Assembly: GCA_030765805.1 (NCBI GenBank) | Contig: JAVCDH010000048.1 | Location: forward strand, 1 to 64,000 | DNA from: Candidatus Euphemobacter frigidus | GTDB taxonomy: Bacteria > Auribacterota > Erginobacteria > Erginobacterales > Erginobacteraceae | Length of the DNA stretch: 64,000 nucleotides | Reading direction: 5' to 3' | Shown here: in pieces, positions 1,025 to 32,069 of the stretch | Numbering within the stretch: position 1 is the stretch's first letter | How the letters are laid out: each line of letters starts with the position of its first letter | Translations under genes and position numbers: made by a program | Notes under the pieces: generated by a model | Databases searched by the model: none | Seen by the model: the letters and a program-made list of their open reading frames with translations, nothing else | What the model was told of the DNA's origin: nothing

Positions 1025-1053
1025 TTGACAAATCGTGCTTTTAGTTCTATATT
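1025..1053 (+). promoter_or_regulatory. Sigma-70-type promoter of the minor-pilin operon
   Basis: TTGACA (1025-1030), a 17-base spacer and TATATT (1048-1053) fit the housekeeping consensus closely. The first gene begins at 1100 with GGAG ahead of its ATG. The downstream bases (TTTAGTATGGTAGGATG) resemble those after the promoter at 2993-3021. Confidence 0.7.
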
Positions 1054-1099: not shown

Positions 1100-1510
1100 A
1101 TGAAGGCGAAAGCTAATTCGAATAACGCCGGTTTTACACTGATGGAGATCCTGATTGTAGTACTGATTATCGGCATTCTGGCGATCGCCATCATCCCCAA
1201 GATACTATCCACCACACAGTTCTCCGCGCTCCTGGCGGCGGAGATGGCCGTTACCGATATCCGGGCCACTCAGACCGCCGCCATGTTCGAGAGCGCTTTA
1301 ATGACGATCCAATTTAACGGTGATAGCACTTATATTATGGGCGGGATAACAAAGACACTCCCGGGAGGAGCAACCTCCGGGGCATATACGATAACCTTCA
1401 ACTCATTCGGCGAGCCTACCGTAGGTGTTGGCACCTTTACTATTACCAGCGGGCCAGATAACAAGTCGATAACGATCTTAGCTCTAACAGGAAAAACAAC
1501 GATAAATTGA
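1100..1510 (+). CDS. Prepilin-like protein 1 (FimT/GspH-type minor pilin)
   Basis: The 136-residue protein has a class III prepilin signal: a short basic leader ending in Gly11, then FTLMEI with the conserved Glu at +5, and a hydrophobic helix (LIVVLIIGILAIAIIP). After processing by a prepilin peptidase and N-methylation it would enter a pseudopilus or the pilus tip through the inner membrane. It is the first of four consecutive prepilin-like genes, an arrangement typical of fimT-pilV-pilW-pilX or gspH-I-J-K clusters. The small, beta-rich, Gly/Thr-rich C-terminal half fits a minor pilin. The exact subtype is inferred from gene order rather than from sequence. Confidence 0.8.
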   Translation: MKAKANSNNAGFTLMEILIVVLIIGILAIAIIPKILSTTQFSALLAAEMAVTDIRATQTAAMFESALMTIQFNGDSTYIMGGITKTLPGGATSGAYTITFNSFGEPTVGVGTFTITSGPDNKSITILALTGKTTIN

Positions 1511-1518
1511 GATCTATA

Positions 1519-1956
1519 ATGAACTTTCATCACTTCTTTAGAACCGGATACAGGAATGGCGCCGGGTTTACGCTGATCGAGATCGCGGTAATGATCCTGG
1601 TGGCGGCTATCATCCTCCCGACCCTGATCCTCCCGTTCGTTGAAGGAGTATCTGAGCTGGATCAGCCAATGATAATGACCACGTTAACCTTCCTGGCCCA
1701 GGAGGAGATGGAGACGAGGGTCATCTGTCGTACTTACGACACGGTTGCCGGGTGGGCCAGTACCGCCATTGACGGGTTTCCCGATTACACCAGCGAATGC
1801 GCAATTGATGATACCGTCACCTTCGGTCCGGTAGTCGCTGGAGTTAGAAAGATTACCCTTCGAGTGACCTATAATGATCCTGAACTCGATCCGGATCCGT
1901 TTCTGGAGTTGGTGACGGTCAAAACAGACTGGGGAGCGCCTATGCCACCACCGTAG
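1519..1956 (+). CDS. Prepilin-like protein 2 (PilV/GspI-type minor pilin)
   Basis: From the ATG at 1519 the protein has 145 residues; a TTG at 1507 could add four and would overlap the previous gene. The leader ends at Gly16 and is followed by FTLIEIAVMILVAAIILP, a standard prepilin cleavage site and helix. VRKITLRVTY near the C-terminus resembles the strand conserved in PilV/GspI proteins. The protein ends in a Pro-rich PMPPP tail. It lies directly behind prepilin 1 and is probably translationally coupled to it. I call it a minor pilin that primes assembly or sits at the tip, with the PilV assignment tentative. Confidence 0.78.
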   Translation: MNFHHFFRTGYRNGAGFTLIEIAVMILVAAIILPTLILPFVEGVSELDQPMIMTTLTFLAQEEMETRVICRTYDTVAGWASTAIDGFPDYTSECAIDDTVTFGPVVAGVRKITLRVTYNDPELDPDPFLELVTVKTDWGAPMPPP

Positions 1957-2019: not shown

Positions 2020-2559
2020 ATGAGATATCGTCACCATCATCGAAGTTCGGCCAAGGGATACTCCCTGATCGAGCTGGCACTGGTCATCGTTCTCATGGCT
2101 ATCCTGGCCGGATTCGCATTTCAGGCTATCCTTAAGTCTGTTTCGATCTATGTCACATCTTCCCGGGATTATCTGATGGTATCTCAGGGAGGGAGGATCG
2201 CCATGGAGAAGATGATCCGAGAGGTCCGTGAGACGAATCCCGGGAGCATTGCGGTGGGCGGCGAAACTATCTCCTTCACCAAGCATATCGGAACGCCCGA
2301 AGACCCGAATCTAATGGTAACTTTCTCAAAAAACGGCAGCGAGATCGTGAGAACCACCACCGCGGGGACATTTGACCTGGTTGATAATATCTCCATCTTT
2401 AATCCAAGCCAGGACATCGGCACCAAAGTGGTCACGATTGATTTTACCCTATCGAAAGAAAATACCACTATCCGCATGAGATCCGCAGTCTGGCCACGAC
2501 AACCTGCTCCTGGCGGCGGCATCCCAACACCAACACCAATACCAACACCAACACCCTAA
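2020..2559 (+). CDS. Prepilin-like protein 3 (PilW/GspJ-type minor pilin)
   Basis: This 179-residue protein has a His/Arg-rich leader ending at Gly13, followed by YSLIELALVIVLMAILAG. The residue after the cleavage site is Tyr rather than Phe, which prepilin peptidases tolerate. The following region (RIAMEKMIREVRETNPGSI) matches the start of PilW/GspJ-type proteins. The C-terminus is a PTPTP tail of the kind that links domains in the large secreted protein at 24872-27886. A GAGG lies ahead of the ATG. It sits third in the minor-pilin set, as GspJ/PilW usually does. Confidence 0.78.
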   Translation: MRYRHHHRSSAKGYSLIELALVIVLMAILAGFAFQAILKSVSIYVTSSRDYLMVSQGGRIAMEKMIREVRETNPGSIAVGGETISFTKHIGTPEDPNLMVTFSKNGSEIVRTTTAGTFDLVDNISIFNPSQDIGTKVVTIDFTLSKENTTIRMRSAVWPRQPAPGGGIPTPTPIPTPTP

Positions 2560-2599
2560 AAACAGAAGAATGACTGGGTATATCGAAGGAATATATATA

Positions 2600-2962
2600 A
2601 TGAATCAGCGTTCTAATATAACAAAGAACTCGGAAAACGGGTTGGCACTAGTCGCCTTGATCGCGATCATGCTCATTATCGGGATCGTCGCATATACATT
2701 CGTCAATATTATTTCTACCCAGCTAATATCCCAAGAGGCGCCTTTTAATTCCATAAAATCATTTTATATTACCGAGGGGGCATTGGAGATAGGAAAGAAG
2801 TATATTTCTGATCAGAATGGAACAAGACCGGCGGGATGGCCTCCCGATACCGTTATCCCCCTCTATGATGATGAACCCATGGGAGACGGGACATTTGACC
2901 TCAGTATCAACTGGCCGGCAACCGGTTCTATCACTCTCAACGCCACCGCCAATGTGGATTGA
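2600..2962 (+). CDS. Short PilX/GspK-like prepilin
   Basis: AAGGA precedes the ATG at 2600; an upstream start at 2570 is less likely. The 120-residue protein has a leader ending in Gly14, then LALVALIAIMLIIGIVAYTF. It lacks the Glu at +5, as is usual for GspK/PilX. SFYITEGALEIGKKYI resembles the conserved xFYxAExGLE segment of PilX-type proteins. It is much shorter than GspK and closer to PilX. As the last of four prepilin-like genes it would complete a tip complex. The next gene has its own promoter at 2993. Confidence 0.7.
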   Translation: MNQRSNITKNSENGLALVALIAIMLIIGIVAYTFVNIISTQLISQEAPFNSIKSFYITEGALEIGKKYISDQNGTRPAGWPPDTVIPLYDDEPMGDGTFDLSINWPATGSITLNATANVD

Positions 2963-2992: not shown

Positions 2993-3021
2993 TTGACAAA
3001 TCAATAATTTCGCCTTATATT
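2993..3021 (+). promoter_or_regulatory. Sigma-70-type promoter of the tandem exported-protein genes
   Basis: TTGACA (2993-2998), a 17-base spacer and TATATT (3016-3021) form a near-consensus promoter. Both the start of the spacer (AATC) and the downstream TTTATGTATGGGTAGATG resemble the promoter at 1025-1053, which suggests co-expression of the two units. Confidence 0.65.
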
Positions 3022-3073: not shown

Positions 3074-4414
3074 ATGAGAATGCTGCCGGGAGTTTGGGGG
3101 TCGGTGGTATTCTGTCTGTCCCTGTTCTTTATCTTTTTGCTTAGCAACCCCGCCTGGGGAGAAGCAACCAGAAGATTGGCCGAGCAGGTCGATCTGCCGA
3201 CCAAAGGTGGCGGCGAGGGCGGCTTCATCCCGCCCGGGGCCGGCGTCTTCGGAAAGGCCAAGTTCCAGTTTTCCGGATCCGGCGGGTGCTACTCCTACGA
3301 TCCGAGGGTCTACTCCTCTCCCCCCAGCAATATCAGCCAGATGGGACCGGGTCACTGCGGGAGCAATGAACATATCTACTTCGATGGATCGTCCACCGTT
3401 AGCGGCCATGTGAACGTTCCCCAGTCGATTGTGGACGAGGTCGCGGGGGGAAACTTCACCCATCTTCAAGGCGGTTGGTCCTGCTCCGTAGGAACAAAGC
3501 TCCCCGTCGGGATGACCGGAGAAGAGGGAGATTTGCGGGAGTTTCAGGGACCCCGTAATACTTCCCAACTCCAGGGCTGGAAACCAAGCGAGTGGCCGCC
3601 GGAGGGTACGTATAACTCGGGCACCCCCTGCTGGCCGTACGATCCGGGCTATGCCGCCTTTCCGGTCGTCGATCCCCAGTGGGACAAAGACGGAGACGGG
3701 GATACCGACACGGCCGATTATGACTACTTCGTCACTCAAGGCGGCTTTGCCGCTGAACGAGGAGGCGGAGGCGGCGAGATTTCCTATACCGCGAAGGACG
3801 ATCCCACGATTATGGTGATGGACAAAGGAGTTCTAGTCCCGGCCAGTGAGGGGCAGGATTACTATATCGACGAGAACCATAACTTCGTCGGGACCTGGAA
3901 GACAGTCTACTTCACCGGGACACAATATCGATTCAATAACTTCCAAAGCGGGGCGAGTCAGTCCTATCACTACACCGGTAACATGGACTTTTACTGCGAA
4001 AACTTCCATCATGGGGGGAGCAATAACATGCTCCTTGACCCCAACGCGAGCATCGTCATGGCGGTGAAGAACAGCATCGTATTTGATGGTGAGTCGGACT
4101 TCAATGTTGGTGGGTCGTCCAGCCAGTTTGACGTGGTCTGTACCGGAACCACGGTCAATATCGGTGGGTCCGCGGACGGAACAGCCGGTTCCGTCTATGC
4201 CCCCAACGCCAACATAGTGATTGAGGGGGCCGGCTGGATCTACGCAGCAATCATCGCCAACAGCGTCGAGATCGGAGGAAGCCGCTCAATCTGCTATCCA
4301 CTCAATTATCAAGGGCCGAACGGAGGAGCCGGAGGCAGTGGAGGTGGCGGCGGGGGTACGCCGATTAATCCCCCATCAAGAGAAGACTGGAAAGAGATAA
4401 TCATCTCCGATTAA
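3074..4414 (+). CDS. Exported Gly/Asn-rich protein A with PilX-like C-terminal region and calcium-type loop
   Basis: AAGGAGG at 3061-3067 fixes the start at 3074, giving 446 residues. A signal peptide (MRMLPGVWGSVVFCLSLFFIFLLS...AWG) leads into a mature protein with seven cysteines. Around mid-protein DKDGDGDTDTADYD is a dockerin/EF-hand-like calcium loop. The C-terminal third (MLLDPNASIVMAVKNSIVFDG...SVYAPNANIVIEGAG...AAIIANSVEIGG) resembles the beta-helical region seen at the end of some PilX-like pilus assembly proteins. A Gly-rich stretch and PINPPSREDWKEI close the protein. There is no prepilin motif, so it is probably exported by Sec and may act with the minor pilins just upstream. Its paralogue follows in tandem. 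Function is inferred from context only. Confidence 0.6.
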   Translation: MRMLPGVWGSVVFCLSLFFIFLLSNPAWGEATRRLAEQVDLPTKGGGEGGFIPPGAGVFGKAKFQFSGSGGCYSYDPRVYSSPPSNISQMGPGHCGSNEHIYFDGSSTVSGHVNVPQSIVDEVAGGNFTHLQGGWSCSVGTKLPVGMTGEEGDLREFQGPRNTSQLQGWKPSEWPPEGTYNSGTPCWPYDPGYAAFPVVDPQWDKDGDGDTDTADYDYFVTQGGFAAERGGGGGEISYTAKDDPTIMVMDKGVLVPASEGQDYYIDENHNFVGTWKTVYFTGTQYRFNNFQSGASQSYHYTGNMDFYCENFHHGGSNNMLLDPNASIVMAVKNSIVFDGESDFNVGGSSSQFDVVCTGTTVNIGGSADGTAGSVYAPNANIVIEGAGWIYAAIIANSVEIGGSRSICYPLNYQGPNGGAGGSGGGGGGTPINPPSREDWKEIIISD

Positions 4415-4478
4415 CTATAGATAAAAGCATTGGTTCAATTTTATTACACCATAAAATAATATAACAGGGAGAAGTGCA

Positions 4479-5831
4479 ATGAAAACTGTGCCGGGAGGAT
4501 GGGCGGTGGTAGTGTTTTTCCTGATCACTCTCTTCATTCTGCCAATTAGCAATGATGCCCGGGGGGCATCGAGGAGCGTGACCGAGCATGTCGTACTGCC
4601 GACTGAACCCGGCGGCGGGAGTGGGGGATATTTCCCGCCCGGGACCGGTGTCTTCGGGAAGACCAAGTTCCAGTTGACCGGGTCTGGAGGATGCTACTCC
4701 TATAACCCGACCGTCTATCCTATACCCCCATCCAGCATCAGTAATATGGGACCGGGGCACTGCGGGAGCAACGAGCAGATCTATCTCTCGGGGTCGGTGA
4801 CGGTCAGCGGGCATGTCAATGTCTCTCAGTCGATTATGGACGAAGTCCAGGGGGGTGACTTAACTCACCTGCAAGCAGGCTGGTCTTGCGGAGTTGGGAA
4901 CAAGCTCCCGATTGGCACCACTGGAGAAGAGGGGGATGACCGCGAGTTTGCCGGACCCCGGAATACCTTCCCACTCCAGGGCTGGTGGCCGCCGGAAGGG
5001 ACCTATAACTCGGGCACCCCCTGCTGGCCGTATGATCCCGGCTATGCCGCCTTCCCGGTCATCGATCCCCAGTGGGACAAGGATAATGACGGGGATACCG
5101 ACACGACCGATTACGACTATTACGTCCAGCACGGCGGTTTTGCCGCGGAGAACGGGGGACCAACCGGTGAGATCTCCTACACCCAGAAGGACGACCCCAC
5201 CATCTGCGTCATGGACAAGGGAGTCCTGATCCCGGCCAGCGAAGGACAGGCCTGGTACGACGACTACTACATCGACGAGAATCATAACTTCGTCGGGACC
5301 TGGAAGGAGGTCTACTTTACCGGAGATCAGTACCGTTTCAACAACTTTGAGAGCGGGGCGAGTCAATCTTACCATTACACCGGAAATATGGCATTCTACT
5401 GCGATAACTTCCACCATGGGGGGAGCAATGACATGCTCCTTGACCCTAACGCGAGCATCGTCATGGCGGTGAAGAACAGCATCGTGTTTGACGGCGCGTC
5501 GAACTTCAACGTGGGTGGAAGCTCCAACCAATTTGATGTGGTCTGCACAGGGCCCACGATCGATATTGGGGGGTCCGCGAACGGGACGGCTGGCAGCTTC
5601 TACGCCCCCAACGCGGACATGGTAATCGAAGGGGCCGGCTGGATCTACGCGGCGATCATCGCCAACAGCGTCGAGATCGGAGGAAGCCGGTCGATCTGTT
5701 ATCCGCTCAATTACCAGGGGCCGAACGGTGGAGCAGGTGGCGGGGGCGGCGGGGGCGACGGGGGCGATGGCGGTACACCGGTTAATCCCCCATCAAGGGA
5801 AGACTGGAAGGAGATTATCGTCTCCGATTAA
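4479..5831 (+). CDS. Exported protein B, tandem paralogue of protein A
   Basis: GGGAGAA precedes the ATG at 4479. The 450-residue product aligns with protein A over its whole length. It shares the signal peptide, the calcium-type loop (DKDNDGDTDTTDYDYY), all seven cysteines (plus one extra in the TICVMD segment), the YAPNA...AAIIANSVEIGG C-terminal region and the final NPPSREDWKEI. Differences are concentrated in the first 60 residues, around the calcium loop, and in a short AWYDD insertion. The gap after gene A is 64 bases without a visible promoter, so the two are probably co-transcribed. Transcription should end at the double hairpin at 5831-5908. The duplication looks old enough to have diverged but not decayed. 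Confidence 0.6.
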   Translation: MKTVPGGWAVVVFFLITLFILPISNDARGASRSVTEHVVLPTEPGGGSGGYFPPGTGVFGKTKFQLTGSGGCYSYNPTVYPIPPSSISNMGPGHCGSNEQIYLSGSVTVSGHVNVSQSIMDEVQGGDLTHLQAGWSCGVGNKLPIGTTGEEGDDREFAGPRNTFPLQGWWPPEGTYNSGTPCWPYDPGYAAFPVIDPQWDKDNDGDTDTTDYDYYVQHGGFAAENGGPTGEISYTQKDDPTICVMDKGVLIPASEGQAWYDDYYIDENHNFVGTWKEVYFTGDQYRFNNFESGASQSYHYTGNMAFYCDNFHHGGSNDMLLDPNASIVMAVKNSIVFDGASNFNVGGSSNQFDVVCTGPTIDIGGSANGTAGSFYAPNADMVIEGAGWIYAAIIANSVEIGGSRSICYPLNYQGPNGGAGGGGGGGDGGDGGTPVNPPSREDWKEIIVSD

Positions 5832-5870
5832 TCCGGTTTAAGCATGCTTATAGGCGTGCTTAAACCGGAT
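5831..5870. terminator. Long inverted repeat behind the exported-protein genes
   Basis: ATCCGGTTTAAGCATGC pairs with GCGTGCTTAAACCGGAT around a 6-base loop (one G-T position). It starts at the stop codon of gene B and is followed at once by a second hairpin, so the two together probably stop transcription. Confidence 0.6.
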
Positions 5871-5875
5871 TGTGT

Positions 5876-5908
5876 AAAAAATACAGGGCTGAGGCCCTGT
5901 ATTTTTTT
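5876..5908. terminator. Bidirectional intrinsic terminator
   Basis: AAATACAGGGC, TGAG, GCCCTGTATTT form a perfect stem preceded by an A tract and followed by a T tract. It can therefore work on either strand. It closes the plus-strand pilin/exported-protein unit. Confidence 0.8.
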
Positions 5909-6017
5909 CTACCAATCCATTCCGGAATTGTAAATAATTAAAACGTTACTGTGGGATCCCAACATTTTTAATGTCGTGGACCCACAGATAATCAAAGATA
6001 TTCCAAGACAGTCCGTC

Positions 6018-15252: not shown

Positions 15253-15468
15253 CTAATACGGATTGGAGAAGTAATAGGCCATGAACAGAAAGAAGAGCCC
15301 GATGATGATGAAGATGATTCCCACCGAGATCCGGTACTTTAGTGTTTTGTGATCAGTTGAGACAATCTGGTTCAATAGTCCGCTTAACTTAATCAACATT
15401 CCGGGGGCAACCAGGAACAATATTCCCGATATCAACGCGATTAAACCTATTAAGATAAAAGCTGTCAT
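15253..15468 (-). CDS. Small two-helix membrane protein at the end of the pil operon
   Basis: The 71-residue protein has two hydrophobic helices (FILIGLIALISGILFLVAP and ISVGIIFIIIGLFFLFMAYYF) separated by a short polar loop. Its start overlaps the pilQ stop by four bases (ATGA), so it is translationally coupled to the secretin. No family was recognised. A role in the inner membrane beside the pilus machine is possible, but only context supports it. Confidence 0.6.
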   Translation of the reverse strand: MTAFILIGLIALISGILFLVAPGMLIKLSGLLNQIVSTDHKTLKYRISVGIIFIIIGLFFLFMAYYFSNPY

Positions 15469-17711
15469 CTCCTCCGACTCCTTTTCATCGCTTTGGTAAT
15501 AGTCCGGCCTTGAAATTCACCTTTATTCCCTTCTTTCTCCTCCACCTTGCTCTCTTCTCCCTCTTCTTCTTCCGGTTTCTCCGGTTCGGGTTCTTTGGCG
15601 CTCTTATAGAGATAGGGTCTGACCTGATCGTCCTCAACATAACGAACATCTTCCAAGGCATCCGGAGGAGATTTCTCCAGCATAATCTTCTCGTAGGCGG
15701 AGAGTTCCATATCTTCCGTAACAATCCTGGCGGTGATAAAGATCAAAAGGTTGGTCTTTTCAAGCTTGGTATACTCTTCCTTAAAGAGGTAACCAAGGAT
15801 GGGAATGTCACCCAAGAGAGGAATCTTGTCCTCCTGATCAACAGTTACGCTGGATATCAGACCGCCAATAACGATAGTATCTCCATCGTTGATTGTGACA
15901 TTAGTATCAGCCTCGCGAATTTTGATAATCGGATAACTACTGTAGACCTGGTTGCCCTGATTGTCTACCGAGTAGGCATTTTCGTCCGTCGTACTCACCG
16001 CCGGGTGGATAATCATGTTGATGCGATCCCCGTCACCCTCTTCCCTGGCCCGAACCTGGGGAATCACCTTCAAGGTTATGCCGATCTCCTTCCATTCATC
16101 GACCGAGGTCCCCCCGACCGCGCCCCCACCTTCGGAACCGACCTCGGTCTTCAGGATCGGGTACCGCTCCCCGACGAATATCTTGGCCGCGTAATTCTCA
16201 TGGACAATAATACGGGGGTTGGAGAGGATGACGATATTCCTGTCGGTTTTCATCGCGCTCAGCATCAGATTGAAGTCCGCCGCGCCCAGAACCGCTGAGT
16301 AGGCCTGCCCGGAAGTAGTCAGATTGGTCAGTGTGTCTGAGATAGTATTGACATACTTATCAATGATTGTATTTGTGTCGGTATTATCATAACCCTGCTT
16401 TTCGAAATAATCATGCACTTTTGTTACTGTGAGATCGCACGACTGGGAAGGTCCGGTATTACCATTTATTCCCCACTTTGATATATCCTTATTGGTGTAG
16501 TCATAACTTTGGTATCCTTCACCTGTGATTATATTGGTGATCTTGTTCTCATCACTCCACTCTATATTGTTGACGGTTTTATTCTCTTTCTCTCTCTTAA
16601 ATTCACGACCAAATTTTGCTTCCAGGCCGCCCGCGCCAATCTGCCACTGGTTCAGAGCCTGGGTCCAGTTGATTCCAAGACGGAACTCCCGGTCAATCGG
16701 AACTTCCAGGACCTTGGCGTCGATCATGATCTGGGGCGGTCTCTGGTCGATCTTCTTGATCACCTTATCGACCCGGTCCAGGACGGTCTGGATATCCTGG
16801 ACGATCAGGGTCCGGGAGCGGACGAACTCGGTGGCGGCTTTCTCCTCCGCCCTCGCGCCGAAGGTCTCGGTTGCCTCAAATTCGAACCCGGTATACTGCT
16901 TGGTCTGGAGGACCATCACCTTGCCCCGGGCGCTGATCATGGGCTCGATCGCTTCTTTGGCATCGTTGGCATCGATATACTTCAGTTTGAATATCTTTAC
17001 CACTAAAGGTTCCGCCGCCTCTACTGCCACCCTCTTCTTCGCTTCCTCGATCGCCTTCTGAGCCGCGGCCGCTTCCAGGGCCGCCCCGGCGGCGTTCTCC
17101 TCCTGGATCTTCTCCATGGTGGTCACCCGCAGGATGTTTCCGCTAACCTGGTAGCTCAAACCCTGATCCACCAGGATCGTATCCAGGGCGTTGATGATCT
17201 TGACGTTAGTGAAGTCGACCGTGACTTTTCCCTGGACCTCCGGCGCCAGAGTTATGTTGAAGTTATAGGCCTTGGCCAGGCTCCTTAGAACAACCCGGAT
17301 GTCCTCATTCACGAACTTTAAGCTGCCCCGTTTCTCCAGTTGTTCTTTCAATGAGATATCGACAGGCTCGTCCTCCGCCGGGGGGAGAATGGTGGGGGGC
17401 TCCGCTTTTTTCAACGGAACCGGTTTCGCGTGCTCATCCTCCTTCGGGCTTACCTCTCCGGCAAGAGAAGAGGGGATGGCTCCGTCCCGCGCTACGGAGG
17501 AGAATTCATTCTTGATGTCTCCCTGAACCGGATCGGCCGGGTGCTCCTCTTGCCGCAGTTCCTGTTTAATCTTCTCCATCGCCAGGATAATTTTTCTATC
17601 CATCCCGGGGGCCGCTTTAAGGGGTTGAGACGGGATCAGGTTAAGTCCCATAGAAAGAGCAATCAAAATCAGAATTGAGGTATGGATCGGCAGTCCGGTT
17701 ATTTTTTTCAT
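15465..17711 (-). CDS. pilQ: Type IV pilus secretin PilQ
   Basis: The start at 17711 (MKKITGLPIHTSILILIALSMG) is preceded by GAGGA and gives 748 residues with a signal peptide. A Pro-rich linker leads to an STN/secretin N-domain at about 125-200 (LKFVNEDIRVVLRSLAKAYNFNITLAPEV). A second N-domain follows at about 235-345 (VVKIFKLKYIDANDAKEAIEPMI). The C-terminal secretin barrel includes VILSNPRIIVHENYAAKIFVGERYP and GDTIVIGGLISS...KIPLLGDIPILGYLFK. The acidic tail (EPEKPEEEEGEE) is unusual. PilQ forms the outer-membrane pore for the pilus. It ends a minus-strand operon pilMN-pilO-pilP-pilQ. Confidence 0.95.
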   Translation of the reverse strand: MKKITGLPIHTSILILIALSMGLNLIPSQPLKAAPGMDRKIILAMEKIKQELRQEEHPADPVQGDIKNEFSSVARDGAIPSSLAGEVSPKEDEHAKPVPLKKAEPPTILPPAEDEPVDISLKEQLEKRGSLKFVNEDIRVVLRSLAKAYNFNITLAPEVQGKVTVDFTNVKIINALDTILVDQGLSYQVSGNILRVTTMEKIQEENAAGAALEAAAAQKAIEEAKKRVAVEAAEPLVVKIFKLKYIDANDAKEAIEPMISARGKVMVLQTKQYTGFEFEATETFGARAEEKAATEFVRSRTLIVQDIQTVLDRVDKVIKKIDQRPPQIMIDAKVLEVPIDREFRLGINWTQALNQWQIGAGGLEAKFGREFKREKENKTVNNIEWSDENKITNIITGEGYQSYDYTNKDISKWGINGNTGPSQSCDLTVTKVHDYFEKQGYDNTDTNTIIDKYVNTISDTLTNLTTSGQAYSAVLGAADFNLMLSAMKTDRNIVILSNPRIIVHENYAAKIFVGERYPILKTEVGSEGGGAVGGTSVDEWKEIGITLKVIPQVRAREEGDGDRINMIIHPAVSTTDENAYSVDNQGNQVYSSYPIIKIREADTNVTINDGDTIVIGGLISSVTVDQEDKIPLLGDIPILGYLFKEEYTKLEKTNLLIFITARIVTEDMELSAYEKIMLEKSPPDALEDVRYVEDDQVRPYLYKSAKEPEPEKPEEEEGEESKVEEKEGNKGEFQGRTITKAMKRSRRR

Positions 17712-17715
17712 CTGT

Positions 17716-18213
17716 TTAGTCCTCGGGCATGGTAAGTATATACGACTGTCCATCTTTTTCCAATGTTATCCCATAATTTCCCACTTTAATCAGCAGGTAT
17801 CCTTCAAACTCTTCTCCCACCCCGACAATGGCGCCGTTTATAGTGGCGGCCCGGCCGGGGATAACCCCTGAGAGCGTGAAATCTTTCCAGTCACTCGACT
17901 GTTTATCATTTTTAGTCACCGGGGGAGGCTGAAAAGGATCTCTCCCCCACGGTTCATCGGCAATAGTGTTCTGCATCCGGACCAACTTCTCATTCAGAGG
18001 GGGGAGTACTCCCCAATCCGATTTCGCGGCGACCGGCTTGGTTGAAACCTCGACCGTGGCAGCAGCCGGGGCCTGTGTTTGTGCCTCTACCTCTGTCTTC
18101 TGACCCGCTGACTTCTTTTTCTTCGAGACGGTGCTAAGACTATTATATAGAACGAAGGCCAGGACCGGGATCAACACGATAATAAAGATTTTTTCTTTCT
18201 TCTTTTTATCCAT
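17716..18213 (-). CDS. PilP-like inner-membrane protein
   Basis: The 165-residue protein has one N-terminal membrane helix (IFIIVLIPVLAFVLYNSL) after a Lys-rich start, a low-complexity Ala/Thr/Gln linker, and a C-terminal beta domain (DFTLSGVIPGRAATINGAIVGVGEEFEGYLLIKVGNYGITLEKDG). The last part resembles the PilP/GspC homology-region domain that binds the secretin N0 domain. AAGGA precedes the ATG, and the stop lies four bases before the pilQ start. Gene position between pilO and pilQ supports the assignment. A membrane helix in place of a lipoprotein signal makes it GspC-like in topology. Confidence 0.75.
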   Translation of the reverse strand: MDKKKKEKIFIIVLIPVLAFVLYNSLSTVSKKKKSAGQKTEVEAQTQAPAAATVEVSTKPVAAKSDWGVLPPLNEKLVRMQNTIADEPWGRDPFQPPPVTKNDKQSSDWKDFTLSGVIPGRAATINGAIVGVGEEFEGYLLIKVGNYGITLEKDGQSYILTMPED

Positions 18214-18275
18214 TATTTTTTTCCTTCGGAAAAAATACTAAGAAACAGTTCCCCGCCTTAAAAATTCATGGATAG

Positions 18276-18836
18276 TTACCGGATATCGGGCCGGCTCAAA
18301 TAAGTTGTTAACTCCAACTCCACCTGGAGATTATTCTCTTCCCCCTTCGAAGCCGGTAGGTTGTGATTGGCCATGATCGCCAGATCGGAGACGGATATTA
18401 TAATCGGCAAGTTGGCAATATGCTCCAGGAACTCTCCAAGAACCCGGTACGGGCAACGGGCGGAGATATTGATCTCATATACTCGCAGGGTGCTTGCTTC
18501 ATCCTCAATCGGTACTTCGGCGGTATCCCGCCTCGAGATCTTAAACCCGACTTCCCGCGCGGCCTCCGTAATCGCCTGATAGATAAGTTCGATTGTTCTT
18601 GGATACTGCGTCTCCAGACGCTCCAGCCTCTCTCGCGCGGTCGCTATCTTGGCCCGAATCGTGGGGATATCGGCTTTCTTCAATTCCACTTCAGCAATTT
18701 CCTTGTCGAGCGCTTTTGCCTCTTTCTGAAGCCGTTCAAGCTTTCCGGAAACCGGGCCCAAGACAAAGAGCCGGAATATAACCAGGAGAAACACCACTCC
18801 AAATAAGATGCCCAATGCTTTCAGCGTATAATTCAT
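18276..18836 (-). CDS. pilO: Type IV pilus inner-membrane protein PilO
   Basis: The 186-residue protein has one N-terminal helix (ALGILFGVVFLLVIFRLFVL), a coiled coil (GKLERLQKEAKALDKEIAEVELKKADIPTIRAKIATARERLERL) and a ferredoxin-like C-terminal domain (VYEINISARCPYRVLGEFLEHIANLPIIISV). This is the PilO layout. PilO pairs with PilN to link the cytoplasmic PilM ring to the secretin. It lies between the pilMN fusion and pilP, separated from pilMN by a hairpin. Confidence 0.88.
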   Translation of the reverse strand: MNYTLKALGILFGVVFLLVIFRLFVLGPVSGKLERLQKEAKALDKEIAEVELKKADIPTIRAKIATARERLERLETQYPRTIELIYQAITEAAREVGFKISRRDTAEVPIEDEASTLRVYEINISARCPYRVLGEFLEHIANLPIIISVSDLAIMANHNLPASKGEENNLQVELELTTYLSRPDIR

Positions 18837-18861
18837 AATTTAGCTCACTACTTTAATTTAG

Positions 18862-18890
18862 TGAACCGACTGCCGCAAGCAGTCGGTTCA
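18862..18890. promoter_or_regulatory. Intergenic hairpin between pilMN and pilO
   Basis: TGAACCGACTGC pairs with GCAGTCGGTTCA around a 5-base loop. The outer arm overlaps the pilMN stop codon. No T tract follows, so it may adjust downstream expression or protect the mRNA rather than end it. Confidence 0.5.
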
Positions 18891-20774
18891 GTAAATTAAA
18901 GTGCAACGAAAACTGAAGGTGCCTTTATCGATATCCTCCGAGATCTTCTCCACATCTTTGAAGAATGGTGAATTCTCTACTTCAACAATGAATTGAGTCG
19001 CCCCGGAATGAAGAGACGAATCCGGATCGTGTACCCGCCCGCTGCAAAGAATGCGCTGGAGACCTTCCCCCTCTTGAGAGATGATCTCGGAGAGGATGGC
19101 GGTGGGCGGAGTAATCCGGCTGAACTCTTTCAGAATCCCTTTCCAGTTCGGTTGGCGGAGGGAGGAATAAAAACCGACTTTTTCCCGGGCAATCAGTTGG
19201 GTATGCAAACCCGATAGCTCTTTATAAGGTCCCAGTTCCCCTTTCAGGATGTCTAATTGTTTTTGTTTTATCGCTACAATCTTTTCTTGCTGGGGGATCA
19301 GGGCGGCTTTCGAGCGATAAAATAGAAAACTAATAATAAATAAGGCCACTACCGGAACCAGGATCAGGATCTTGCGACGGAGAACATTTTGCAGAATCTT
19401 ATCCAGTGGGGGGACGAAATTAACTTCCCATCTCCGGCTTAAGGAGAGCGCCACCGCCCGGGCTAAACGAGGAAAGAGAGCTTGCGCCGTCTCATCGGAA
19501 GAGAGCGACTCGTGAAATCGGATCCGGTTGGAAATCCCGATCAGCTTAACCGGGGGACGCAGTCGTTCTCGAAAGAATTTATCGAAACCGGTGAGCAAAG
19601 CGCCGCCGCCACAGAGATATACCCGGCTTACTTCTTCTTCCCGATAGAGCTGGCGGTAGTATTCCAGAGAGCGTTTGCTCTCCTTGACGATCTTCTCCAG
19701 TACCGGGCGAACCATTCCCGCGATCTGGGAGATCGTAAGAGTATCCTTTAAAGTTTGGGTGCCGTTGGACTGGAAGAGATCAGCTGTCTTTTTTATCTCC
19801 TCAGCTTCCTTCCATGAAATCCCATCCCTGACACCAAAGGTCTGGCCGGCCTGAATGATAGCCTCGGTAATATGCGTTCCACCGGTCTCGAACTCCCGGC
19901 TAAAATGGAGGATGTCTTCTTTATAGATGGAGACCTGAGTATGGGTCAGGCTGATATCGACTACCGCCACTGCCCCGTTAGCATCCGGGGAGGGCAATAT
20001 ATTAATATAATCTTTCCAGACAAATGGGAGCGAAGGCAGCGCGGCTACCTGGAGACCAGCCTCTCTCAGGAACCCCAGAATACGGCTGACGGTCTCCCGG
20101 CTTACCGAAGTAACGATGTAATTTAACTTTCCTCCGGGGCGCGCTGTCTCACTCTCCACAGCGGTGTGCCGGATCAATGCCTTATCGATGTTGAAGGTTA
20201 CCCTTCTGCCGGCTTCCAGCCGGCAGGCGCTATCCAACTCCGCCTTCGGCATCCGGCTCAACTGAATCAAGCCGGTATTTACCTGGTTTCCCCGGAGGGC
20301 ACAGACCACGTTTTCCTTCCCAGCCCTGGTTTGGGAAAATAATTCTTTTAACCGTTTGGCGAAGTTTTCATTCTCAAAGAGGCTCCCTCCCCCCGGACCC
20401 GGCTGAAATTCCTGTATAGCGTATCCTCCGATCTCCCACCCATCCGAGACCGGGTAAAGCTGGATCAATTTAACCGATGAAGAACCGATATCCAGTCCCA
20501 GAAAGGCGTTCCGGCGCCGGGAAAAACTACCTCCCATGATCAACTTCCCCGGTGTTGTTGTCGGCCGCGGGGGCACGGAAGGCGCGCTAAGCGCCGCTTT
20601 TAGTTGGCTTTCTTTTTCCCCGGTTGATGGGGGCGGTAACATTCCGGGTGGAGGAGAGACAGGTTTGTTTTTGGCGCCGGGTTTCTCGGCCCGTCCGTTG
20701 TTGATATCTTCCAGCCCCGCGAAGATGGAAGATATATCTTTCTGCAAACCTGATTTTTTCTTTTCCTCGGGCAT
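18888..20774 (-). CDS. PilM-PilN fusion protein
   Basis: The start at 20774 (MPEEKKKSGLQKD) gives 628 residues; an upstream in-frame extension to 20822 is read from a dispersed repeat and is discounted. A 75-residue Pro-rich extension precedes the PilM actin-like ATPase (AFLGLDIGSSSVKLIQL). Further PilM motifs include VAVVDISLTHTQVSIYKEDILHFSREFETGG and VYLCGGGALLTGFDKF. At about residue 455 the PilN part begins with VNFVPPLDKI, the counterpart of the PilN INLLP motif that docks into PilM. It continues with a helix (ILILVPVVALFIISFLFY), a coiled coil and a ferredoxin-like domain. PilM and PilN are separate genes in most T4P systems, so this fusion fixes the complex at 1:1. Confidence 0.88.
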   Translation of the reverse strand: MPEEKKKSGLQKDISSIFAGLEDINNGRAEKPGAKNKPVSPPPGMLPPPSTGEKESQLKAALSAPSVPPRPTTTPGKLIMGGSFSRRRNAFLGLDIGSSSVKLIQLYPVSDGWEIGGYAIQEFQPGPGGGSLFENENFAKRLKELFSQTRAGKENVVCALRGNQVNTGLIQLSRMPKAELDSACRLEAGRRVTFNIDKALIRHTAVESETARPGGKLNYIVTSVSRETVSRILGFLREAGLQVAALPSLPFVWKDYINILPSPDANGAVAVVDISLTHTQVSIYKEDILHFSREFETGGTHITEAIIQAGQTFGVRDGISWKEAEEIKKTADLFQSNGTQTLKDTLTISQIAGMVRPVLEKIVKESKRSLEYYRQLYREEEVSRVYLCGGGALLTGFDKFFRERLRPPVKLIGISNRIRFHESLSSDETAQALFPRLARAVALSLSRRWEVNFVPPLDKILQNVLRRKILILVPVVALFIISFLFYRSKAALIPQQEKIVAIKQKQLDILKGELGPYKELSGLHTQLIAREKVGFYSSLRQPNWKGILKEFSRITPPTAILSEIISQEGEGLQRILCSGRVHDPDSSLHSGATQFIVEVENSPFFKDVEKISEDIDKGTFSFRCTLIY

Positions 20775-20796
20775 GATTATTTTGAACCGCTGAATT

Positions 20797-20843
20797 GAAC
20801 CGCAGAGACGCAAAGAACGCAAAGGAAAAACTGCTATAGTTTA
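20797..20843. repeat. GAACCGCAGAGACGCAAAG repeat, left end of a decayed element
   Basis: GAACCGCAGAGACGCAAAG, continuing AACGC, then AAAAACTGCTATAGTTTAT, matches the repeat directly downstream of the GxxExxY gene at 24405. On the reverse strand the last bases still read Asn-Lys-Leu-stop, like the Tyr-Lys-Leu-stop end of that gene. An inverted copy lies at 21078-21114. Confidence 0.7.
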
Positions 20844-20910
20844 TTTCGTAAATTAGACAAGCTTATTGATAACATCCCATTTTCTTGAGCTGGTCGGCTA
20901 TTTAACAATT

Positions 20911-21000
20911 GTCACATTGCGAGGGAGGTACGACCGAAGCAATCTCCTTTAAAACCGGAAGAGATTGCTTCGTCGTTCGTTCCTCATTCCTCGCAATGAC
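20911..21000. repeat. Inverted pair of CATTGCGAGG...CGAAGCAATCTC palindromic repeats
   Basis: One unit (20911-20946) and an inverted unit (20961-21000) face each other around a 14-base spacer. A third unit of this family lies inside the type IIG coding sequence at 62605-62639. The pair sits between the two inverted GAACCGC repeats, where a gene is absent. Confidence 0.75.
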
Positions 21001-21066
21001 TCGGATTTTGGGGGTTTCGTTCAGTCACTATTTAAGAAATGTATCTTTGATATTGTTTCAAATCAT

Positions 21067-21873
21067 TCAAACTCTTATTTTTTCCTCTGCGTTCTCTGCG
21101 TCTTCGCGGTTCATTATTTTTTGTTTTTCAAGAATCTCATCGGCCAGACGGCCGTAGTCCTCCGCGCCCCGGGAACCCGGAGCGTAGATATGTATCGGCT
21201 CATTGGCACTGGGAGCCTCCGCCAATTTTGAATTAACCCTTATGATCGTGCGGAGAATCCGGGAACTGAAATAATCCTTTAAACCTTTGAGAACGTCCCG
21301 GCTGATGGAAGTTCTCCCGTCATAAAATGTGGGCAATATCCCCAGGATCGCCAGTTGATAGTTAAGACGACTCTTAACAATATCAATCGTATGGAATAGT
21401 AACTTCATCCCTTCCAGAGCGTAGTAATGGGCTTGAATAGGGATCAGGACCTCATCCGCCGCCGCCAGGGCGTTTATGGTCAATAGACTTAAAGAAGGCG
21501 CGCAGTCAATAGTTATATAATCATATCCATGGATGATGGAAGAAGTTTTATTCTTTAAGACGCTCTCCCTCCCCATAATATTAGCCAGGTCAAGATCGGC
21601 CCCGGAGAGGAGGATAGTGGCGGGAATTATATCGAGATTATAAACCCCGGTTGGATAAATCGCCTCCGCGATTTCAAACCCATCATCTGTCAGGATCCGA
21701 TGAATGCTTCTCCCCGGATCAACCTCAATACCCAGGCCCAGGGTGGCGTTGGATTGCGGATCAAGATCGATGAGCAGTACCCGAGCCTCCCGGGCCGCCA
21801 GACAGGCGCTCAGATTTACGGCGGTAGTGGTTTTTCCGCACCCACCTTTCTGATTGACGATCGCGATAATCAA
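21067..21873 (-). CDS. ParA/MinD-family ATPase in the pil cluster
   Basis: The 268-residue protein starts at a TTG at 21873 (MIIAIVNQKGGCGKTTTAVNLSACLA), since the deviant Walker A motif must begin the protein. LLIDLDPQSNATLGLG, YITIDCAPSLSLLTINALAAADEVLIPI and YALEGMKLL are classic ParA motifs. It has no N-terminal HTH, so it is a small chromosomal-type ParA. It lies between pilT and pilMN, far from both parB genes. It could position the pilus machine at a pole or serve chromosome segregation. Its last 16 residues come from a dispersed repeat. Confidence 0.88.
   Translation of the reverse strand: MIIAIVNQKGGCGKTTTAVNLSACLAAREARVLLIDLDPQSNATLGLGIEVDPGRSIHRILTDDGFEIAEAIYPTGVYNLDIIPATILLSGADLDLANIMGRESVLKNKTSSIIHGYDYITIDCAPSLSLLTINALAAADEVLIPIQAHYYALEGMKLLFHTIDIVKSRLNYQLAILGILPTFYDGRTSISRDVLKGLKDYFSSRILRTIIRVNSKLAEAPSANEPIHIYAPGSRGAEDYGRLADEILEKQKIMNREDAENAEEKIRV
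21078..21114. repeat. Inverted GAACCGC-type repeat fused to the 3' end of parA
   Basis: TTTTTTCCTCTGCGTTCTC followed by TGCGTCTTCGCGGTTCAT is the reverse complement type of the repeat at 20797. It lies inside the parA reading frame and encodes MNREDAENAEEK near its C-terminus. Confidence 0.75.
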
Positions 21874-21946
21874 GTGAAATCTTTCTCTAAAAAGGTTTCA
21901 GTGAAGGGACCATCTTGGCCCCATTTATTTCAGCTCCAATCTCTGA

Positions 21947-23014
21947 TCATCCCTCCTTAAACTTCTCCGGTATATCACGGAAACTGTCCATATCCTTAAC
22001 GTGCCCGATGGCTTCTTCATAGCTCACTTTTTCGTTAAGAACCAGTTCTTTCAGAGACTGATCCATGGTGTGCATTCCATATTGGGCGCCGGTCTGGATC
22101 TGGGTGGGGATCTGATGGGTCTTATGTTCCCTGATCACGTTTCTTACGCCGGGGGTTCCAATCATAACCTCGGTCGCCACCACGCGCCCCGCCCCGCTCT
22201 TCATCGGCAGCAGAATCTGGGCCATTACACCCTGGAGACAGCCGGCCAGTTGGATCATGATCTGTTTCTGCTGCGCGGGAGGAAAGACATCTATCAACCG
22301 GTCGATCGTCTGGGCGGCGTCCGGGGTATGGAGACTGGATATAACCAGATGCCCGGTCTCCGCCGCGGTGATGGTGGTGGAGATGGTCTCCAGATCACGC
22401 ATCTCCCCGACCATGAGCACATCCGGATCCTGGCGCAGTACGTGCTTGAGAGCGTTTGCAAAAGAATGCGTATCAGACCCCACTTCCCGCTGCTTGATGA
22501 CGCTCTTTTTATTGGTATGCAGATATTCAATCGGATCTTCGGTGCCTATGATCAGGCAACTCCTCTCCCGGTTGATCAGATCGATCATGGCCGCCATCGT
22601 CGTGCTCTTGCCGGTCCCGGTCGGCCCTGTGATCAAGACCAGGCCGGTGGGTTTTCGGGCCAGTGACTTGACCACTTCGGGAAGTCCCAGCGTATCGATA
22701 TGGGGAATCTCCATCGGGATGGTACGGAAGGCCGCCTCCACGTATCCTTTCTGCATATGGACATTTACCCGGAACCGGCTGAGCCCGGGTAAGTAGAGGG
22801 AGAGGTCGAGCTCGAGGTCTTTTTCGAAGCTCACCTTCTGACTGTCGTTAAGGACCCCGTAGATAAGGGATTTAGTATCATCCGCGGAAAGGGGAGGAAA
22901 ATCTGTCCGGATCAGCTCACCGTCAATCCGGATAATGGGAGGTTCCCCGGTGGTGATATGAAGATCGGATGCTTTCTTGCTGACGACCAGTTCCAGGATC
23001 TCTTTGAGATGCAT
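21947..23014 (-). CDS. pilT: Pilus retraction ATPase PilT
   Basis: The 355-residue protein has the PilT N-terminal PAS-like domain (LELVVSKKASDLHITTGEPPIIRIDGEL), Walker A (GPTGTGKSTTMAAMIDLIN), an Asp box (GTEDPIEYLHTNKKSVIKQREVG), Walker B (DPDVLMVGEMRDLETI), a His box (GHLVISSLHTPDAAQTIDRLIDVFP) and the AIRNLIRE-like element in the form VRNVIREHKTHQIPT. PilT is a hexameric cytoplasmic motor that disassembles the pilus. It shares the operon with a second PilT paralogue upstream. Confidence 0.95.
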   Translation of the reverse strand: MHLKEILELVVSKKASDLHITTGEPPIIRIDGELIRTDFPPLSADDTKSLIYGVLNDSQKVSFEKDLELDLSLYLPGLSRFRVNVHMQKGYVEAAFRTIPMEIPHIDTLGLPEVVKSLARKPTGLVLITGPTGTGKSTTMAAMIDLINRERSCLIIGTEDPIEYLHTNKKSVIKQREVGSDTHSFANALKHVLRQDPDVLMVGEMRDLETISTTITAAETGHLVISSLHTPDAAQTIDRLIDVFPPAQQKQIMIQLAGCLQGVMAQILLPMKSGAGRVVATEVMIGTPGVRNVIREHKTHQIPTQIQTGAQYGMHTMDQSLKELVLNEKVSYEEAIGHVKDMDSFRDIPEKFKEG

Positions 23015-23077
23015 AAATTAGCTCCCGTAGTCTATCCCGATTCATCGGGGGTCACTACTTTATCTGAATAAACTTTC

Positions 23078-23170
23078 GAACTTTAGTCACTTTAGTTCAC
23101 TTCGAACTTCAGTCACTTTAGCTCACTTCAAACTTTAGTCACTTCGAACTTTAATCACTTTAGCTCACTT
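23078..23170. repeat. Degenerate TTTAGTCAC minisatellite between the two pilT genes
   Basis: Units of the form ACTTTAGTCACTT(C)GA alternate with AGTTCACTT/AGCTCACTT variants, the reverse-strand form of the GTGACTAAA family. The array runs into the stop codon of the second pilT gene, whose last residues (Lys-Val-Ser-stop) are read from a unit. Confidence 0.8.
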
Positions 23171-24254
23171 TAAAAGTATCCGTCCCGGTAAATATCCCCT
23201 TGATCGCCAATTCCAGGAGTTCGGGGTTGGCCGAGTTCTCCATCGCGTCCTCGTAGCTGATCTTACCATCTTGATAAAGCTTCAAGATGGACTGATTGAA
23301 GGTCTGCATGCCGGATATCTTTCCCGCTTCGATGGTCTTGTGCAGTTCTTCCGTCTTGCCCTCCATGATCTGTTTTCGCACGGTCGGGGTGGTGATCAAC
23401 ACTTCACATGCCGGCACTCTCCCCTCCCCGTCTTTCCGGACGATCAACCGCTGGGCGACTATCCCCCGGAGGACGAAGGAGAGCTGCGTCCTGATCTGAG
23501 GGTACTGGTAGGCGGGGAAGAAATTAATAATCCTCTCCAGGGTCTGGCTGACCTCAATCGTGTGCAGGGAGCTGATGACCAGGTGTCCTACTTCCGCCGC
23601 CATGATCGCGCTGGTCATCGTCTCCAGGTCCCGCATTTCTCCGATGACGATAATGTCAGGCGCCTGTCGGATGACATATTTCAAAGCGGATGGAAAGCTC
23701 CGGGTATCATATCCCACTTCCCTCTGATTGATTATGCATTTGTCTTCCCGGTAGGTGAACTCAACCGGGTCTTCAATCGTAATGATATGTTTCTTCTTCT
23801 GCCGATTAATATAATTGATCATGGCCGCTAGTGTCGTACTCTTGCCCGATCCGGCGGCGCCGACGATCAGAACCAATCCCCGGGGCTGCAACGCGAGTTT
23901 CTCCATAACTTCTACCGGTAGGTTGAGATCGGCAAATGTCTGCACCTCCCGCTTGATTCTCCGGCAGACGAACGCCATCGCTCCATGCTGGTAAAATAGA
24001 TTGATCCTGAATCTGGGTCCTTTCCTTAGTGCATACGCGACATCCATCTCCCGGTCATTTTCCAGTAGACGGAGTTGTTTTTCATCCAACACATGCCGGG
24101 CGAACCTCTCCATGTCATTCTCGGTGAGGGGAGGATGTTCGGAGTATGGTATTATCTCCCCGTTGATTCTCAGGTTCGGCGGCTGGCCGGCCTTCAGGTA
24201 AAGGTCCGAGGCCTGCCGTTCTTCCATGGTCTGTAATAGCTGTTCAAATCTCAT
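23160..24254 (-). CDS. Second PilT paralogue (PilU-like ATPase)
   Basis: From the ATG at 24254 (MRFEQLLQTMEERQASDLYLKAG) the protein has 364 residues. It has Walker A (GAAGSGKSTTLAAMINYIN), ITIEDPVEFTYREDKCIINQREVG, Walker B (APDIIVIGEMRDLETM), a His box (GHLVISSLHTIEVSQTLERIINFFP) and VRKQIMEGKTEELHKTIE. Substitutions in the Walker A (Ala-Ala for Pro-Thr) and arrangement next to pilT fit PilU, an accessory retraction motor. An alternative start five codons upstream is possible. Confidence 0.88.
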   Translation of the reverse strand: MRFEQLLQTMEERQASDLYLKAGQPPNLRINGEIIPYSEHPPLTENDMERFARHVLDEKQLRLLENDREMDVAYALRKGPRFRINLFYQHGAMAFVCRRIKREVQTFADLNLPVEVMEKLALQPRGLVLIVGAAGSGKSTTLAAMINYINRQKKKHIITIEDPVEFTYREDKCIINQREVGYDTRSFPSALKYVIRQAPDIIVIGEMRDLETMTSAIMAAEVGHLVISSLHTIEVSQTLERIINFFPAYQYPQIRTQLSFVLRGIVAQRLIVRKDGEGRVPACEVLITTPTVRKQIMEGKTEELHKTIEAGKISGMQTFNQSILKLYQDGKISYEDAMENSANPELLELAIKGIFTGTDTFKVS

Positions 24255-24277
24255 CGTAACTAACCACAAAATATTTT

Positions 24278-24400
24278 GAACCGCAGAGACGCAGAGAACG
24301 CAAAGAAAAAACTGTTATAGTTTATCAACCGAACTCTTAATCTTTTTTAGAACCGTGGTGTTATATTCCTTCTAATTATAAGTTAAACATCTTTAAAATA
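24278..24400 (-). pseudogene. Decayed 3' end of a GxxExxY gene with its flanking repeat
   Basis: A GAACCGCAGAGACGCAGAG repeat at 24278 continues into bases that on the reverse strand read YNTTVLKKIKSSVDKL-stop. This parallels the intact neighbour's FNVPVLKEGIKRLVYKL-stop. The rest of the gene is gone. It is therefore a relic of a second, tandem GxxExxY cassette. Confidence 0.6.
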
Positions 24401-24867: not shown

Positions 24868-24871
24868 CGTC

Positions 24872-31854: not shown

Positions 31855-31859
31855 GCTTT

Positions 31860-32031: not shown

Positions 32032-32069
32032 CACAAACTTGGTTATATTGCCGTTAAGGCTAAGAAGGG

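What the first reader, a model, noticed from the sequence alone, without database searches (positions are those of the whole stretch)
3074..5831. Tandem exported proteins linked to a minor-pilin set
Two paralogues with signal peptides, seven shared cysteines, a calcium-type loop and a PilX-like YAPNA...AAIIANSVEIGG region follow four prepilin-like genes. They occupy the place where PilY1-like tip adhesins are found in other T4P systems. Together they may form an alternative tip complex with calcium-dependent adhesion.
Basis: inference. Interest (0 to 1): 0.6.

Follow-up and report, generated by a model that had tools for sequence, protein, structure and literature searches.

The report
Pilus-tip protein split into two genes
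Two exported proteins next to a set of minor pilus genes look like the cut-off outer half of a pilus-tip protein that most bacteria make as one chain, now made and exported separately, which suggests how a detachable tip adhesin can arise.

Summary
Window 3074-4414 and 4479-5831 encode paralogues (78% identical) with signal peptides, seven shared cysteines and an EF-hand-type loop, directly after fimT-, pilV-, pilW- and pilX-like genes. The 'PilX-like' region is Pfam DUF7305, which in most proteins read here is the outer module of a PilX-type prepilin in one chain. In a genome of the same family (G003), the same operon position holds one fused PilX-DUF7305 gene. In the window the chain is cut in the loop between two strands of the pilin domain, and the outer half has gained a signal peptide, ribosome site and its own promoter. 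Both ends of the exported proteins keep features found in fused proteins: an N-terminal R-x-[VIL]-x-E-x-V strand and a C-terminal tryptophan tail. A similar tail ends 16 of 17 PilY1 proteins examined. PilY1 itself is missing from the five closest genomes. I infer a two-chain pilus tip in which the exported beta-solenoid docks on the PilX stub by beta-strand complementation. Docking is not shown: both structure predictions were low-confidence. Split pilins and PilX-PilY1 strand addition are known separately; this is a new variant.

The parts
1025..1053 (+). sigma70-like promoter of the minor-pilin operon (TTGACA-17-TATATT)
   Evidence: pattern scan, 11 of 12; a consensus match only
1100..1510 (+). 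FimT/FimU-like minor prepilin
   Evidence: Pfam N_methyl E 6.7e-7; same order in G001-G004
1507..1956 (+). PilV-like minor prepilin (ATG 1519 likely start)
   Evidence: N_methyl E 0.026, below cut-off; synteny
2020..2559 (+). PilW-like minor prepilin
   Evidence: N_methyl E 3.4e-5; synteny
2570..2962 (+). PilX stub (ATG 2600 likely start): prepilin helix plus the first strands of the pilin domain, ending ..NATANVD
   Evidence: hhalign to fused PilX-DUF7305 N-termini, probability 98.8, ending at the S-T-G-x-V strand; alignment A2 with fused G003
2993..3021 (+). own sigma70-like promoter of the exported pair (TTGACA-17-TATATT)
   Evidence: 11 of 12; 13 of 3000 shuffles reach it; also in G001 (12 of 12) and G002 (11 of 12), not in G004
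3074..4414 (+). exported DUF7305 protein, copy 1 (446 aa; signal peptide 3074-3160)
   Evidence: Pfam DUF7305 E 5.6e-7; alignment A1
3161..3199 (+). predicted N-terminal donor strand EATRRLAEQVDLP
   Evidence: aligns with the strand after the cut in fused G003, ARRVIAERV; R, E, V invariant in 6 of 6 rows of A1
3683..3718 (+). EF-hand-type loop DKDGDGDTDTAD
   Evidence: sequence; motif spacing recalled
4025..4297 (+). DUF7305 core, copy 1
   Evidence: Pfam profile positions 86-178
4376..4411 (+). C-terminal tryptophan tail SREDWKEIIISD (predicted donor strand), after a Gly-rich linker
4479..5831 (+). exported DUF7305 protein, copy 2 (450 aa; signal peptide 4479-4565)
   Evidence: Pfam DUF7305 E 8.2e-7; 78% identical to copy 1
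4566..4601 (+). predicted N-terminal donor strand of copy 2, ASRSVTEHVVLP
5076..5111 (+). EF-hand-type loop DKDNDGDTDTTD
5424..5702 (+). DUF7305 core, copy 2
   Evidence: Pfam profile positions 85-178
5793..5828 (+). C-terminal tryptophan tail SREDWKEIIVSD of copy 2
5828..5915 (+). double hairpin, likely terminator, after copy 2
   Evidence: folding -50.1 kcal/mol, z -10.65; not flagged by the pattern scan
15465..38340 (-). type IV pilus machine of the same contig: secretin 15465-17753, PilM 18888-20822, PilT-type ATPases 21947-23014 and 23160-24269, major pilin-like 32070-32450, PilC 32614-33831, PilB 36511-38340
   Evidence: Pfam; the pilin-like ORF by eye

Best explanation
The locus encodes a two-chain pilus tip. 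A one-chain modular tip pilin (PilX-type prepilin carrying a DUF7305 beta-solenoid) has been divided in the hairpin loop between two strands of its pilin domain. The first half (2570-2962) stays a prepilin that enters the tip with the FimT-, PilV- and PilW-like subunits. The second half exists in two tandem copies, is exported through a cleavable signal peptide from its own promoter, and docks from the periplasm on the PilX stub by supplying missing strands of the pilin sheet: an N-terminal strand (RRLAEQV) and a C-terminal tryptophan strand (EDWKEIIV) on a Gly-rich tether. The solenoid is then displayed at the pilus tip in place of PilY1, as adhesin or receptor. Shown: homology, the cut site, synteny, conservation of both terminal segments, purifying selection, absence of PilY1. 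Inferred: docking, strand complementation, tip location. Unknown: the ligand.
For: One fused gene in the same operon position in G003 (521 aa, no stop). The fused form is usual: PilX-like N-terminus plus DUF7305 in 21 of 37 solenoid-matching ORFs from this phylum and others, and in 5 further proteins fetched later. The stub profile ends at the S-T-G-x-V strand of the fused profile; the strand after it lies at the start of the mature exported protein in all 5 split copies of G000, G001 and G002 and in G004. C-terminal W-x-[EDK] in the last 30 residues: 19 of 21 fused, 5 of 5 split, 2 of 11 others (the two are one ORF with its N-terminus cut off and one with a PilX-like N-terminus by eye). PilY1 C-termini: W in the last 16 residues in 16 of 17, against 18 of 110 other ORFs. 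The one profile hit among solved structures, weak, is ComZ, whose solenoid sits between penultimate and last pilin strand (PMC6561018, passages). AlphaFold models in print join PilX and the C-terminal strand of PilY1 by strand addition (PMC11046646, PMC13190605, passages). PilY1 over cut-off in 0 of 5 genomes. Both copies under purifying selection.
Against: No direct evidence of contact between the two chains. Structure models are poor (mean pLDDT 40.1 and 37.6), and the joined-chain model did not show the predicted pairing. ComZ is matched only at E 0.41. The C-terminal tryptophan could mark shared descent rather than docking; the fused proteins are related and 14 of the 21 built the profile. 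The two M. xanthus PilY1 strands given in PMC11046646 have no tryptophan. An own promoter and two copies suggest more exported protein than tip sites. G003, fused, groups with the split G001 (94/93), so the history is not a single simple step.
Confidence: 0.58

Rival explanations
1. The exported proteins are pilus-dependent secreted effectors (as TcpF and CofJ are for type IVb pili): they hook onto the minor pilin by one end, are pushed out by the pilus and released, and act away from the cell.
For: Separate export, own promoter and two copies fit a product made in excess. TcpF and CofJ bind their tip minor pilin through a flexible N-terminus (PMC9565799, passages).
Against: The conserved C-terminal tail also occurs in one-chain proteins that cannot be released, and in PilY1, a tip protein. 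No sequence relation to TcpF/CofJ was tested.
Confidence: 0.17
2. After the split the exported solenoids have left the pilus and are free or surface-bound proteins; the PilX stub is a normal short PilX that works without them, and shared position is historical.
For: Other exported or non-PilX DUF7305 proteins exist in the survey (for example L055, L065, L070 and the 1312-aa ORF of the window's own genome, L020).
Against: Those lack the tryptophan tail where the C-terminus is complete, except L106 (the completed L065), which ends in W; all split copies keep the tail, keep the N-terminal strand, and stay beside the stub.
Confidence: 0.15
3. The two-gene form is the older state and fused genes arose by fusion; no fission took place here.
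For: Within the order, split genes are in G000, G001, G002 and G004; the only fused one, G003, nests with G001 (94/93).
Against: Outside the order every PilX-associated DUF7305 protein read here is fused, in several families and phyla. Split ancestral in the order with later re-fusion in G003 remains possible.
Confidence: 0.1

Closest known systems
One-chain PilX_N-DUF7305 modular minor pilins (Pfam PF14341 + PF23981)
   Same: DUF7305 solenoid, neighbouring minor pilins, strand segment after the S-T-G-x-V strand, C-terminal tryptophan tail
   Different: here the prepilin part and the solenoid are two genes, the second with a signal peptide; this family also has an inserted EF-hand-type segment, and the split copies have more cysteines
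ComZ of Thermus thermophilus (PDB 6QVI)
   Same: GspK-like tip pilin with beta-solenoid; in ComZ the solenoid lies between penultimate and last strand of the pilin fold
   Different: one chain; sequence match only E 0.41
PilY1/PilC tip adhesin with PilX
   Same: exported, encoded with fimT/fimU, pilV, pilW, pilX, C-terminal tail with tryptophan (16 of 17); printed models show C-terminal strand addition to PilX
   Different: no PF05567 propeller, smaller, solenoid instead
Geobacter PilA-N / PilA-C split major pilin
   Same: pilin divided into adjacent helix and globular genes by proposed gene fission (PMC5174107); heterodimeric subunit (PMC11046646)
   Different: major pilin, no added module; here a tip minor pilin
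CofB-CofJ and TcpB-TcpF
   Same: exported protein held by a tip minor pilin through a terminal peptide
   Different: type IVb, N-terminal peptide in a trimer cleft, no shared descent of the partners claimed

Membership tests
PilX_N-DUF7305 modular minor pilin | DUF7305 domain over curated cut-off | tested here: met
   30.1 and 29.5 bits against 27
PilX_N-DUF7305 modular minor pilin | prepilin N-terminus in the same chain | tested here: not met
   signal peptide instead; prepilin part is the preceding gene
PilX_N-DUF7305 modular minor pilin | one-chain homologue at the same locus in a relative | tested here: met
   G003, L019 2614-4179
PilY1/PilC | PF05567 beta-propeller domain | tested here: not met
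   no hit in the window proteins; 0 of 5 genomes over cut-off
PilY1/PilC | exported protein encoded with fimT, pilV, pilW, pilX | tested here: met
PilY1/PilC | C-terminal strand that completes the PilX sheet | tested here: inconclusive
   shared tryptophan tail; joined-chain model pLDDT 37.6
ComZ-type solenoid pilin | beta-solenoid inserted before the last pilin strand | tested here: inconclusive
   solenoid-like strands in residues 225-378, mostly pLDDT 55-70; ComZ rank 37, E 4.2, by fold and E 0.41 by profile of fused relatives
Split pilin (PilA-N/PilA-C type) | pilin divided into two adjacent genes with a fused relative | tested here: met
Split pilin (PilA-N/PilA-C type) | the two chains form one subunit | not testable with these tools
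   no multimer prediction or binding assay
Calcium-dependent adhesin | calcium binding needed for adhesion | not testable with these tools
   only an EF-hand-type loop in sequence

The most novel reading that the evidence does not exclude
One-chain solenoid pilins (ComZ/PilX-DUF7305), PilY1 and the split proteins here are three forms of one design: the display module returns to the pilin domain with a C-terminal tryptophan strand that closes the PilX sheet, in the same chain or from another. The window family has moved from the one-chain to the two-chain form, and G003 back again, so strand complementation in trans is an evolved, reversible step, and the natural fused/split pairs make it directly testable.
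Probability: 0.3. Interest if true: 0.75.

Novelty: new variant of a known kind. Interest (0 to 1): 0.55.

Why it matters
Models say that PilY1 is held at the pilus tip by adding a strand to PilX, but how such a two-chain tip could arise is open. A family in which the same tip protein is fused in one genome and split in its neighbours, cut in a strand-to-strand loop, is a natural experiment for that question. It also proposes a function for DUF7305 proteins (tip display modules) and a simple sequence mark, the C-terminal tryptophan tail, for finding tip proteins that lack PilY1's propeller.

Tried and rejected
Structure of the mature exported protein from 4 rows: mean pLDDT 40.1, only weak solenoid matches, none with E at or below 0.001. 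Structure of stub, intergenic stretch and copy 1 read as one chain: pLDDT 37.6, three stub strands, no reliable pairing with either terminus; I do not count it for the docking model. Search for relatives in viral contigs with A1, a G031 fused protein, a G293 fused protein and the G004 protein: none. Plasmids: none. Wider surveys around G085 and G194 for an independent test of the tail held only 4 and 17 genomes and added one new genome, G384. Mutual exclusion of PilY1 and DUF7305 (17 and 33 of 384 genomes, no overlap) is not significant, P 0.21. Assembly artefact: rejected, because split genes recur in G001, G002 and G004. One fission event: not decided, see the tree. Naming the phylum: the only named record is 'uncultured bacterium'. 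Literature: 'DUF7305' in 0 papers; 'gene fission' with 'minor pilin' in 4 papers, of which I read passages of two, none on a split PilX; the preprint on strand complementation cited in PMC13190605 is not held, so whether it describes the tail is unknown.

Full report
What is there. Window 780-5915 is a minor-pilin operon: FimT/FimU-like (1100-1510), PilV-like (1507-1956), PilW-like (2020-2559) and PilX-like (2570-2962) genes, then two exported paralogues (3074-4414, 4479-5831) and a strong double hairpin. The same contig carries a secretin, PilM, two PilT-type ATPases, PilC, PilB and a pilin-like gene, so a type IV pilus machine is present.

The two exported proteins. They are 78% identical with dN 0.130 and dS 0.986. 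Pfam gives DUF7305 in both and nothing else. NCBIfam gives nothing for them. No solved structure matches their profile at E 1 or better.

Relatives. The long form is confined to the window's family: 4 of 44 phylum genomes. G001 has one split copy after a 115-residue PilX stub. G002 has one copy after a stub, cut by a contig edge, and a second on another contig, preceded by the C-terminal end of a further copy. G003 has a single ORF of 521 residues that runs from the PilX prepilin helix into the solenoid, after fimT, pilV and pilW. G004, in a sister family, has fimT, pilV, pilW, a PilX stub and a shorter exported DUF7305 protein. So 4 of 5 genomes are split and 1 is fused.

What is usual elsewhere. 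DUF7305 is over its cut-off in 10 of 44 phylum genomes and 33 of 384 surveyed. I read the loci the tool returned, not every match. In one search, 37 ORFs matched a solenoid profile at E 1e-3 or better: 21 also matched a PilX-like N-terminal profile (one chain), 5 were the split proteins of G000 (two), G001, G002 and G004, and 11 were neither (among them Tad-like and long exported proteins; L062 and L066 lack their N-terminus, L064 and L065 their C-terminus). In the window's phylum the fused genes of G010, G018, G019, G026 and G031 lie beside other prepilin-like genes (by eye). Of 18 fused N-termini, 6 reach PilX_N at E 0.01, the best at 7.7e-13.

Where the cut is. The stub profile (4 rows) aligns to the fused N-terminal profile, G003 left out, over positions 17-129 of 171 with probability 98.8, ending at the S-T-G-x-V strand. 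In fused proteins the next strand is of the type R-T-V-x-V. In G003 the chain reads FTAVGKVGD-ARRVIAERV. In the window the stub ends NATANVD and the mature exported protein begins EATRRLAEQV; in G004 the stub ends FTASGSVGD and the exported protein begins QNAVRQLRERV. R, E and V are invariant in all six rows of alignment A1 and present in G004. The cut therefore lies in the loop between two strands of the pilin domain (strands inferred from the alignment, not from a solved structure of this family).

The C-terminal tail. Fused proteins end with a short strand-like segment with tryptophan, for example YKMISWEEEP, YSVDHWQEKE, FVINSWKDI. W-x-[EDK] in the last 30 residues: 19 of 21 fused (L056 has W in another context, L069 none), 5 of 5 split, 2 of 11 others (L062, N-terminus missing; L068, PilX-like N-terminus by eye but not scored). 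Among proteins fetched afterwards, 5 of 5 new PilX-type proteins have W in the last 16 residues; of 2 new or newly completed others, L101 has none and L106 ends in W; the remaining rows of that call repeat proteins and were not counted again. The rows are related, 14 of the 21 built the profile, and these counts are not independent events. PilY1 proteins from 16 genomes show a similar tail: W in the last 16 residues in 16 of 17 proteins with a readable C-terminus, against 18 of 110 other ORFs of at least 150 residues (Fisher P 4e-10; one PilY1 locus, L088, was masked and dropped; L094 is the exception). Examples are GRQSWEHVLLP, LKTLLNWREVF and VQINMWREISQQ.

Why this suggests a mechanism. ComZ, the one profile hit of the fused family among solved structures (E 0.41), has its beta-solenoid between the penultimate and last strands of the pilin fold (PMC6561018, passages), so its chain returns to the pilin domain after the solenoid. 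AlphaFold-Multimer models of PilX-PilY1 show the C-terminal strand of PilY1 added to the PilX sheet (PMC11046646, passages; PMC13190605, passages). The simplest reading is that the tryptophan tail is that last strand in one-chain tip pilins, and the docking strand when the module is a separate protein. In the window both the segment after the cut and the tail are on the exported protein. This step is inference.

Expression. A promoter-like site of 11 of 12 precedes the first exported gene (2993-3021), close in sequence to that of the operon (1025-1053). Sites of 12 and 11 of 12 stand at the same place in G001 and G002; G004 has none. Chance in shuffles was 13, 1 and 24 of 3000 for G000, G001 and G002.

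History. A tree of the four minor pilins groups G001 with G003 (94/93) and G000 with G002 (93/95), rooted on G004. With fused genes usual elsewhere, either the split happened before the order and was reversed in G003, or it happened more than once. Cysteines number 7 and 8 in the mature proteins of the window, 7 in G002 copy 2, 5 in G001 and in the part of G002 copy 1 that is present, 1 in G004 and 1 in fused G003; their increase in the split family is suggestive only.

Replacement of PilY1. PF05567 is over cut-off in 0 of 5 genomes of the order examined (best hit in the window's genome E 0.155). Genomes with PilY1 (17) and with DUF7305 (33) do not overlap among 384, but chance alone gives that with P 0.21.

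What failed. Both structure predictions are too poor to test docking. No held paper names DUF7305.

Verdict. It is a new variant of known kinds (modular tip pilins; split pilins; PilX-PilY1 tips), with a clear and testable docking model.

Noticed in passing
window 24872-27886, 28459-31854; L017 10270-12669; L018 3328-6129; L020 4982-8920: Several unrelated exported proteins end in the same tandem repeats of the type [19 protein letters not shown]; one such protein is divergent to the minor-pilin operon in G001, G002 and G003. It may be a shared surface-anchoring or export domain.
   Followed up: no
G000:C42, L020 4982-8920: The window's genome has a third DUF7305 protein (open frame 1312 aa, cut by the contig end) with Pro-Thr-rich stretches and the same terminal repeats, and no tryptophan tail.
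   Followed up: partly
window 54156-54941 and 56359-57144: Two nearly identical ParB/Spo0J-like genes flank a Fic-like gene (55090-56133), next to a nucleotidyltransferase-like gene (57331-58371) and a restriction-methylation-like ORF (61345-63699): a possible defence or mobile island; named by eye only.
   Followed up: no
L014 1-150 (CAKZYZ010000218.1): The public contig contains what looks like an Illumina adapter just before the end of a further copy of the gene (adapter recognised from memory).
   Followed up: no
L045 677-5655: G031 carries two consecutive minor-pilin sets, each with its own fused PilX-DUF7305 gene: duplication of the whole set rather than of the outer module alone.
   Followed up: no
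window 5976-6848: A membrane-anchored protein of unknown family follows the exported pair in the window and in G002 (L016 16066-16956), before ABC-transporter genes; no Pfam hit.
   Followed up: no
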